From NCBI RefSeq assembly GCF_004137855.1, contig NZ_QBKB01000002.1, positions 491,327 through 555,326 on the forward strand: a stretch of 64,000 bases of DNA. The letters run 5' to 3'. Source of the stretch: Methanohalophilus profundi. GTDB taxonomy: Archaea; Halobacteriota; Methanosarcinia; Methanosarcinales; Methanosarcinaceae. Made by a program: the position numbers and the translations under genes. The notes below the pieces were generated by a model, which saw only the letters and a list, made by a program, of their open reading frames with translations, was not told the DNA's origin and made no database searches. Shown here in pieces: positions 45,386 to 47,525 of this stretch (positions are counted from its first letter, which is position 1; each line of letters opens with the position of its first letter).

Positions 45386-46290
45386 ATGAAAAATGTTCTG
45401 TCAATGACGGACCTTTCCAAAGAAGATATACTGAATATATTGGAGACAGGAGAGGATCTGAAAGAAAAGAGAATTAAGGGCAAGGTCACTGATCTGCTGA
45501 AAAACAAAAGCCTTGCAATGATCTTTGAAAAATCATCTACCAGAACCCGGGTTTCCTTTGAGGTGGCCATGAGTGATATGGGCGGCCATTCCCTCTATCT
45601 TAACCAGAGAGACATGCAGATAGGCAGGGGTGAAACGGTTGCAGACACCGCAAAGGTCCTTTCCAGGTATGTGGCGGCTATTACTGCCAGGGTGAACAAA
45701 CACTCGACCGTGGAAGAACTCGCAGAACATGCTACCGTGCCTGTGATCAATGCCCTCTCCGATAAGGAACACCCCTGCCAGATCCTGGCAGACCTGCTGA
45801 CGATCAAGGAGTACAAAAGCACATTAGAAGGGCGGAAACTTACCTGGGTAGGCGATGGCAACAATGTGTGCAATTCAATGATACTTGGTTGTGTCATGGT
45901 GGGAATGGAAATTGCTGTGGCCTGTCCTGATGGTTATGAACCGGACGATGATATCGTAAGCATGCACGTGAAATGGGGGGTAAGGTTGAGACCCTCAGGG
46001 ACCCGATTGAGGCTTCGACTGATGCCGACGTTCTCTATACCGATGTCTGGATATCCATGGGAGACGAAGAGGAAAGGGATAAAAGACTGAGTGACCTGGC
46101 GGATTACCAGATTAACAGTAAATTGCTTGATGTCGCAAAGAATGATGTAATCGTTATGCATTGTCTGCCGGCCCACAGGGGAGAAGAGATATCGGCCGAA
46201 GTTATGGACGGTACCCATTCAGTGGTTTTCGATCAGGCAGAAAACCGGTTGCATGCACAGAAAGCCCTGATTTTGAAACTTATCGGATGA
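45386..46290 (+). pseudogene. argF: Ornithine carbamoyltransferase, frameshifted
   Basis: The first part holds the carbamoyl-phosphate loop [13 protein letters not shown] and the [11 protein letters not shown] motif. At 45958-45959 one A is apparently missing from the A run. Adding it converts IVSMHV into [12 protein letters not shown] and continues to the ornithine motif [12 protein letters not shown], ending 46290 (about 301 residues). Arginine synthesis enzyme. It starts 17 nt after purD. Confidence 0.9.
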
Positions 46291-46320
46291 GAAGTAGCTC
46301 ATCCGTTTGTTCTTTTTTCA
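46283..46320 (+). terminator. Terminator overlapping the argF stop
   Basis: The inverted repeat cggatgag (46285-46292) with ctcatccg (46297-46304) includes the argF stop codon and is followed by tttgttctttttt. Confidence 0.65.
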
Positions 46321-46330
46321 TTTAATGGCC

Positions 46331-46341
46331 CTTTATATTTT
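46331..46341 (+). promoter_or_regulatory. TATA box of the candidate structured RNA
   Basis: ctttatatttt is a strong TATA-like match after the argF terminator and about 25 nt before the first hairpin of the intergenic region. Confidence 0.5.
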
Positions 46342-46357
46342 TTAATGCCATACTCAT

Positions 46358-46545
46358 AGTCACCCCTCGTTGGAAAAAACAGGCAACGGAGGCTATATAC
46401 CTCCCATGCATTCTGTTGATGGGAGAGAAATACAAATTCTAACCCTTGCCGGAGGTTAAAAACTTCCGGCTTACAACCTCCAAAAACAGACTCCTGTATT
46501 TAGATGTCAGGGTGAAATATCCCTGACCTACTGTTTATCCAGGAC
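46358..46545 (+). ncRNA. Candidate structured RNA, four successive hairpins
   Basis: This part of the 302-nt gene-free stretch 46291-46592 has no credible reading frame but dense inverted repeats. A: cctcgttg (46365-46372) with caacggagg. B: ctcccat (46401-46407) with atgggag (46419-46425). C: gccggaggtt (46448-46457) with aacttccggc (46461-46470). D: gtcaggg (46506-46512) with ccctgac (46521-46527). The ggaggtt arm of C can instead pair with aacctcc (46475-46481), a switch-like alternative. It may be an independent small RNA or a long leader of the tRNA gene. No known family recognised. Confidence 0.4.
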
Positions 46546-46592
46546 CAAAACCCTTATGAATCAAAAGCCCCATCTATAGCCAGAAATCGTGT

Positions 46593-46677
46593 GCGAGGGT
46601 TGCCCAGCTAGGCCAAAGGCGATAGGTTCAGGGCCTATTCTCGTAGGAGTTCGAGGGTTCGAATCCCTTCCCTCGCA
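46593..46677 (+). tRNA. tRNA-Leu (anticodon CAG)
   Basis: The 85-nt type II tRNA has a 7-bp acceptor stem (gcgaggg with ccctcgc) and a D arm from 46600. The anticodon stem ataggt..cctat encloses the loop ttcaggg (anticodon CAG). There is a long variable arm, and the T arm contains gggttcgaatccc. The 3' CCA is not encoded. No intron. Confidence 0.93.
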
Positions 46678-46811
46678 TCACAATCTTTTTTGGGTTATAG
46701 TTGGTGCTGAAAAACAGAAATCTGCAAATTGTTTTAAGTGCCGATTTTGTATTAGATGATCAACATTGCAACTTCAAATATTTTATATAATAGAATTTCA
46801 AATCTTCATTC

Positions 46812-47525
46812 ATGCCTAAATTCTTGACCACTACAGGAGTTTCTTTCAAATTAGAAGAGATCATAAAAAGTGCGGATGAAAAATTAATTTTGATTAGCCC
46901 TTTTTTGAAAATTAATGAACGAATTAGAGAGTTAATTGAAGATAAAAATCGAATTAAAATTAATACTGAAGTTATCTATGGAAAAAAAGAAATTCAACCA
47001 GATGAGGATAATTGGTTGAGAAATTTGGATTATGTTAGAACTGGTTTCTGTAAAAATTTACATGCTAAATGTTATTTAAATGAAAAAGAGGCACTTGTAA
47101 CCTCCATGAACCTCTATGAATTTTCTCAACAAAACAACAACGAAATGGGGATATATGTTTCCAAAGAGACAGATCCAGAGTTATATGATGCTATAAATGA
47201 TGAAGCTAAACGTTTGTTTAGAATTAGTGAAGAAGGGAAGGTGACTGTTGAGAAAGTGGCTCGTAAAGAAGAGAAAAAGGAAAATAACAAAAAAAGTAAA
47301 TCCTCTGATAGCGGTTATTGTATTAGATGTAAGAAAGAAATAAAGATAGATCCATTACATCCATATTGCAAAGATTGCTTCATGACATGGAACAAATATG
47401 GTAATGAAGATCATGCAGAAAACGTATGTCATGTCTGTGGAAAAGAAACAAACTCCAGCAAACTGAAACCAATTTGCTACAACTGTTATAAAAAGTACAA
47501 AGGAAAATTAGAGTTGCCTATCTAA
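46812..47525 (+). CDS. PLD-like nuclease domain plus two zinc ribbons
   Basis: The 237-residue protein has an N-terminal phospholipase-D-like domain with an HxK motif (NLHAKCYLNEKEALVTSMNL, residues about 95-115), as in single-domain PLD nucleases. A charged Lys/Glu linker follows, then two C4 zinc-binding segments (CIRCKKEI..CKDC and CHVCGK..CYNCY). Only one HKD half-site is present, so a dimer is expected. Base composition is clearly more AT-rich than the flanking housekeeping genes and it sits right after a tRNA gene, which suggests horizontal acquisition. A TATA box (attttatataa) lies near 46777-46787. Substrate unknown. Confidence 0.75.
   Translation: MPKFLTTTGVSFKLEEIIKSADEKLILISPFLKINERIRELIEDKNRIKINTEVIYGKKEIQPDEDNWLRNLDYVRTGFCKNLHAKCYLNEKEALVTSMNLYEFSQQNNNEMGIYVSKETDPELYDAINDEAKRLFRISEEGKVTVEKVARKEEKKENNKKSKSSDSGYCIRCKKEIKIDPLHPYCKDCFMTWNKYGNEDHAENVCHVCGKETNSSKLKPICYNCYKKYKGKLELPI

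What the first reader, a model, noticed from the sequence alone, without database searches (positions are those of the whole stretch)
46358..46545. Promoter-preceded, hairpin-rich gene-free region: candidate new structured RNA with a switch-like pairing
After a clear argF terminator comes a TATA box and, about 25 nt on, four stable hairpins in 165 nt. Hairpin C (10 bp, tiny loop) competes with a perfect alternative pairing (ggaggtt with aacctcc, 46451-46457 and 46475-46481). No open frame is credible. This is the window's best candidate for an undescribed RNA element; it may also serve as an upstream leader for tRNA-Leu processing.
Basis: partly seen in the sequence, partly recalled or inferred. 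Interest (0 to 1): 0.65.

Follow-up and report, generated by a model that had tools for sequence, protein, structure and literature searches.

The report
Methanohalophilus small RNA with anti-Shine-Dalgarno motif
Between two ordinary genes, salt-loving methane-producing archaea of the genus Methanohalophilus appear to carry an undescribed small RNA gene whose conserved unpaired stretch could cover the ribosome-landing sites of messenger RNAs; it is a real conserved element, but its transcription and targets are unproven.

Summary
The window is from Methanohalophilus. A structured element does lie between argF and tRNA-Leu(CAG), and it is conserved in all eight Methanohalophilus genomes held. 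It is not found in the 104 other genomes of the family searched. Its layout: TATA promoter (46389-46399), a weak 5' stem, a 10-bp hairpin (46448-46470), an invariant unpaired ACAACCUCC (46473-46481), and a second hairpin (46506-46527). The fold is far better than shuffles (z -4.6), the main hairpin shows compensatory changes between the two clades, and the RNA carries no conserved ORF. The 'switch' pairing exists but is about 7 kcal/mol worse. A tRNA-leader role is not supported: tRNA-Leu keeps its own promoter, and in Methanolobus argF and tRNA-Leu lie close together without the element. ACAACCUCC is an anti-Shine-Dalgarno sequence, so the best reading is a genus-specific intergenic sRNA that masks ribosome-binding sites, as M. 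mazei sRNA154/sRNA41/sRNA162 are reported to do. One candidate target is the structured mttB leader (GGAGGUUGUAAG in all eight genomes). The same hairpin-(A)AACCUCC design occurs, unrelated in sequence, in Methanosarcina. Neither is in Rfam. Verdict: a new member of a known kind.

The parts
46389..46399 (+). Promoter (TATA block GAGGCTATATA) of the RNA gene
   Evidence: Identical in all 8 Methanohalophilus genomes although surrounding sequence differs between the two clades; function inferred
46415..46424 (+). Inferred transcription start zone, about 22-27 nt after the TATA block
   Evidence: Inference from archaeal promoter spacing; no transcript data available
46421..46445 (+). 5' stem-loop (GGG..AGAA / UUCU..CCC)
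   Evidence: In the MFE structure of 46416-46545 and in folds of other group-A sequences; weaker than the core stem
46448..46470 (+). Core hairpin GCCGGAGGUU-AAA-AACUUCCGGC
   Evidence: z -4.39; 100% of cells paired in 8 genomes, 2 pairs with changes on both sides
46473..46481 (+). Unpaired anti-Shine-Dalgarno motif ACAACCUCC
   Evidence: Invariant in all 8 genomes; unpaired probability 0.73-0.99 per base; 0 of 13 columns variable over 46473-46485 in group A
46506..46527 (+). 3' hairpin GUCAGGG-UGAAAUAU-CCCUGAC
   Evidence: z -3.17; 1 of 24 columns variable over 46507-46530 in group A; replaced by other hairpins in group B
46544..46567 (+). Separate promoter block of tRNA-Leu
   Evidence: ACCAAAACCCTTA block conserved in all 8 genomes; similar block before tRNA-Leu in genomes without the element
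46592..46679 (+). tRNA-Leu(CAG)
   Evidence: ARAGORN, Rfam RF00005

Best explanation
46415-46545 is an intergenic small RNA gene specific to Methanohalophilus, about 110-130 nt long, transcribed from its own TATA promoter. Two stable hairpins hold and protect a single-stranded ACAACCUCC. That stretch pairs with Shine-Dalgarno regions (GGAGGUUGU) of a few mRNAs and blocks ribosome binding, as reported for sRNAs of Methanosarcina mazei. A candidate target is the structured 5' leader of mttB (trimethylamine methyltransferase). Shown: conservation, fold, invariant motif, absence of a conserved ORF, genus restriction. Inferred: transcription, start and end of the RNA, pairing in trans, direction of regulation, target.
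For: All 8 genus genomes match the core model at E 8.4e-9 or better, and no match of comparable strength appears in the other 104 family genomes. The two clades differ strongly in sequence but share the TATA block, a hairpin with compensatory changes and ACAACCUCC. Fold z -4.62 in clade A and -5.96 in clade B. Group-A columns are invariant at 46473-46485 while 37/105 third codon positions in argF vary. Possible ORFs are broken by 1-nt indels in two group-A genomes and absent from group B. GGAGGUUGUAAG lies in the mttB leader of all 8 genomes; the sRNA segment pairs with it at -27.9 kcal/mol, better than all 1694 tiles of the window. mttB was confirmed by its PYLIS_3 element.
Against: No transcript data. 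Only two divergent clades, so covariation is modest: 2 pairs with double changes, and 119/500 shuffles reach that number. The motif is complementary to many Shine-Dalgarno sites, so target choice is weak. The mttB site was picked by its match, so its rank is biased. Clade B keeps only the 9-nt core of the pairing, and its duplex energy (-21.8 to -22.5) is not exceptional. No terminator is evident before the tRNA in most genomes.
Confidence: 0.55

Rival explanations
1. It is a conserved structured RNA gene that does not act on Shine-Dalgarno sites, for example a protein-binding or ribosome-binding RNA in which ACAACCUCC mimics the 3' end of 16S rRNA or docks on a protein.
For: The 9-mer is invariant while most candidate targets differ between clades; the motif resembles the 16S anti-SD core.
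Against: Published M. mazei sRNAs with known function act by masking ribosome-binding sites (PMC5867862, PMC3510493), which is the simpler precedent.
Confidence: 0.2
2. The element is the 5' part of a joint transcript with tRNA-Leu, a leader that is released by RNase P and has no separate function or helps tRNA maturation.
For: No T-run lies between the element and the tRNA in most genomes, while one follows the tRNA; order argF-element-tRNA is kept where both sides were seen.
Against: tRNA-Leu has its own conserved promoter block; in Methanolobus and ANME-3 relatives tRNA-Leu(CAG) follows argF without the element; an invariant unpaired anti-SD motif is not expected of a mere leader.
Confidence: 0.12
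3. A cis-acting switch in which GGAGGUU (46451-46457) pairs alternately with the hairpin partner or with AACCUCC (46475-46481).
For: Exact complementarity; 6-7 bp of it are possible in all 8 genomes.
Against: About 7 kcal/mol less stable than the hairpin; no downstream coding gene that it could control, since tRNA-Leu follows and the sequence beyond it differs among the relatives; any unpaired CCUCC near a GGAGG arm gives this complementarity.
Confidence: 0.06
4. Ordinary intergenic sequence with chance hairpins.
For: Only the genus keeps it, and no transcript is known.
Against: Invariant motif and promoter across two diverged clades, z below -4.5 in both, compensatory changes in the core stem.
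Confidence: 0.07

Closest known systems
Methanosarcina mazei sRNA41, sRNA154 and sRNA162 (intergenic trans-acting sRNAs)
   Same: Intergenic, own promoter, stable stem-loops, similar size (sRNA154 130 nt, sRNA162 191 nt); reported to mask ribosome-binding sites of mRNAs (PMC5867862, PMC3510493, PMC3177094); same family of archaea.
   Different: Different gene neighbourhood (sRNA154 lies between MM3337 and MM3338, sRNA162 between MM2441 and MM2442); sRNA162 homologues were reported only in Methanosarcina. Their sequences could not be compared here: the sRNA154 paper is not held and the sRNA41 paper was not found in the library.
Methanosarcina hairpin-AAACCUCC module found here (loci L104, L118, L210, L219 and others; no Rfam match in the four loci tested)
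   Same: 10-bp hairpin with tiny loop followed at once by unpaired AAACCUCC and usually an A-rich stretch; covarying stem.
   Different: Hairpin sequence unrelated (GCUCGAGGGU/ACUCUCGAGC), often in tandem pairs, in another locus and in several genomes downstream of a small ORF of about 45 codons; common descent not shown.
Cold-induced conserved sRNAs of Methanolobus psychrophilus R15 (PMC5378194)
   Same: Methylotrophic Methanosarcinaceae, intergenic sRNAs with promoters.
   Different: Sequences not in the text that could be read; the element here was not found in the other genera of the family, Methanolobus among them.

Membership tests
Archaeal intergenic trans-acting sRNA masking ribosome-binding sites (M. 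mazei sRNA41/154/162 type) | Conserved intergenic gene with own promoter and no conserved ORF | tested here: met
Archaeal intergenic trans-acting sRNA masking ribosome-binding sites (M. mazei sRNA41/154/162 type) | Single-stranded region complementary to ribosome-binding sites | tested here: met
   Unpaired ACAACCUCC, invariant in 8 genomes
Archaeal intergenic trans-acting sRNA masking ribosome-binding sites (M. mazei sRNA41/154/162 type) | Transcribed as a discrete small RNA | not testable with these tools
   No RNA data; no usable Methanohalophilus transcriptome found in the library
Archaeal intergenic trans-acting sRNA masking ribosome-binding sites (M. mazei sRNA41/154/162 type) | Pairs with specific mRNA targets | tested here: inconclusive
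   mttB leader 12-13 nt complementary in clade A, 9 nt in clade B; selection bias
Homologue of sRNA41 or sRNA154 by sequence | Sequence or covariance similarity to those RNAs | not testable with these tools
Any Rfam 15 family | Match at gathering score | tested here: not met
   Only RNase P and tRNA in the window; permissive scan gave only sub-threshold chance hits
C/D box sRNA | C box RUGAUGA and D box CUGA | tested here: not met
   No exact C box in any of 8; one single-mismatch site in one genome; no CUGA in group B
H/ACA sRNA | Hairpin with internal pseudouridylation pocket before ACA | tested here: not met
   An ACA follows the stem, but the stem is an unbroken 10-11 bp helix without a pocket
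Riboswitch or attenuator | Alternative structure controlling a downstream gene | tested here: not met
   Alternative about 7 kcal/mol worse; no conserved downstream coding gene, tRNA-Leu has own promoter

The most novel reading that the evidence does not exclude
Methanosarcinaceae repeatedly use one RNA design, a tight hairpin presenting an unpaired (A)AACCUCC, as a general anti-Shine-Dalgarno regulator. In Methanohalophilus the RNA and the structured mttB leader form a pair that sets trimethylamine methyltransferase synthesis, the sRNA competing with the leader's own CUUACARC strand for GGAGGUUGUAAG.
Probability: 0.15. Interest if true: 0.75.

Novelty: new member of a known kind. Interest (0 to 1): 0.5.

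Why it matters
Few archaeal sRNAs have a known mechanism, and those of methanogens come almost entirely from Methanosarcina mazei. A second lineage with a conserved, compact sRNA that presents an anti-Shine-Dalgarno 9-mer would be a simple system for testing how archaeal sRNAs choose among many ribosome-binding sites, and possibly how methylamine use is controlled in halophilic methanogens.

Tried and rejected
Degenerate pattern GAGG-N-ACAACCTCC across the family: of the five hits outside the genus that were read, four lie inside coding genes and one is an isolated intergenic match. Weak R1 matches in Methanosarcina turned out to be a different-sequence module of the same design, not clear homologues. 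Small protein: the longest candidate frames are broken by 1-nt indels in L005 and L006 and absent in L007 and L008. Target list from GGAGGTTGT plus start codon: mostly inside coding genes; an MtrA-like gene, a small glycine-rich protein and mttB stayed as leads, and only mttB was followed. Other GGAGGTTGTAAG sites: one is antisense downstream of mtaB, one next to a corrinoid-protein gene in the window's genome, one inside a large gene in two others. tRNA-Leu 3' end as an attachment site: no second copy in the window.

Full report
Where it is. The window lies in a Methanohalophilus genome: eight genus members were found, one of them M. euhalobius WG-1MB. The stretch 46291-46591 separates argF from tRNA-Leu(CAG) at 46592-46679.

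What is really there. Six genomes (the window's own included) keep the whole interval at 90-100% identity. Two more (G002, G005) are strongly diverged but retain the same plan. Shared by all eight are GAGGCTATATA (46389-46399), a hairpin, ACAACCTCC (46473-46481) and the tRNA promoter block. The RNA downstream, 46416-46545, folds at z -4.62 with no shuffle as good; the diverged copy L008 gives z -5.96. The core stem is paired in every genome and has two pairs changed on both sides between clades. With two clades this is supportive, not overwhelming. In the six close genomes 46473-46485 shows no variable column, against 37 of 105 third codon positions in argF.

Not coding, not a known RNA. Candidate frames are interrupted by single-base indels and are not shared. 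Rfam gives nothing, even with permissive thresholds. C/D boxes are absent and the unbroken stem excludes an H/ACA pocket.

Not a tRNA leader, probably not a switch. argF and tRNA-Leu are close neighbours in several Methanolobus and ANME-3 relatives without the element, and the tRNA has its own promoter block. The alternative pairing is exact but about 7 kcal/mol weaker than the hairpin. Because no T-run separates the element from the tRNA in most genomes, while one follows the tRNA, a transcript that runs on into the tRNA and is cut by RNase P is possible; this is inference.

How it most likely works. The invariant unpaired 9-mer is complementary to Shine-Dalgarno sequences extended as GGAGGUUGU. 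M. mazei sRNA154, sRNA41 and sRNA162 are reported to mask ribosome-binding sites (PMC5867862, PMC3510493). The simplest reading is an RNA of that kind. Among the target leads, the leader of mttB stands out. It is itself structured, has a TATA block, and carries GGAGGUUGUAAG in all eight genomes. The mttB identity is supported by the PYLIS_3 element. The sRNA of clade A is complementary over 12-13 nt, that of clade B over the 9-nt core. The duplex with the window's own mttB leader (-27.9 kcal/mol) beats all 1694 window tiles, but the site was found by its match, so this is biased; clade B values are unexceptional. The 12-mer occurs two or three times per clade-A genome apart from the sRNA itself, and rarely elsewhere in the family, but several of those sites are antisense or inside genes.

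Range. The covariance model of the core finds all eight Methanohalophilus genomes at E 8.4e-9 or better and nothing comparable in 104 other family genomes. The weak hits in Methanosarcina led to a second, unrelated-sequence module of the same design: a 10-bp covarying hairpin followed directly by AAACCUCC, without Rfam match in the four loci tested. Homology of the two is not shown.

Verdict. A conserved RNA gene is very likely (about 0.85). Anti-Shine-Dalgarno action in trans is the best mechanism (about 0.55). mttB as a target is a lead (about 0.2). It is a new member of a known kind.

Noticed in passing
L104:1496-1640 (+), L118, L107, L210, L219, L222 and others: Methanosarcina-like genomes (g8) carry an undescribed module, a 10-bp hairpin GCUCGAGGGU/ACUCUCGAGC followed directly by AAACCUCC, often in tandem pairs and in several genomes downstream of a ~45-codon small ORF; stem covaries (0/500 shuffles reach the score); no Rfam match in the four loci tested.
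   Followed up: partly
L267, L263, L282, L270: about 100-300 nt upstream of mttB: The 5' leader of mttB in Methanohalophilus is conserved and structured: CUUACARC pairs with GGUUGUAAG of a Shine-Dalgarno-like element, in clade A followed by a tiny possible leader ORF (MNKGWFSFP). No Rfam match other than PYLIS_3 inside mttB.
   Followed up: partly
window 45960-45975: argF of the window lacks one G (ATGCACG against ATGGCACG in relatives), splitting it into two frames (45386-46090 and 45973-46290), while other Methanohalophilus genomes have an intact 301-aa argF. Sequencing error or real frameshift.
   Followed up: partly
window 46680-47525: Sequence just after tRNA-Leu differs in most relatives; here a PLD-like domain protein with C-terminal zinc-ribbon-like cysteines follows (Pfam PLDc_2), suggesting a variable site next to the tRNA.
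   Followed up: partly
L254 and L081, about 130 nt downstream of mtaB: The mRNA strand downstream of a gene that looks like mtaB (methanol methyltransferase, by eye) carries the same CTTACAACCTCC as the small RNA, conserved in the six close Methanohalophilus genomes.
   Followed up: partly
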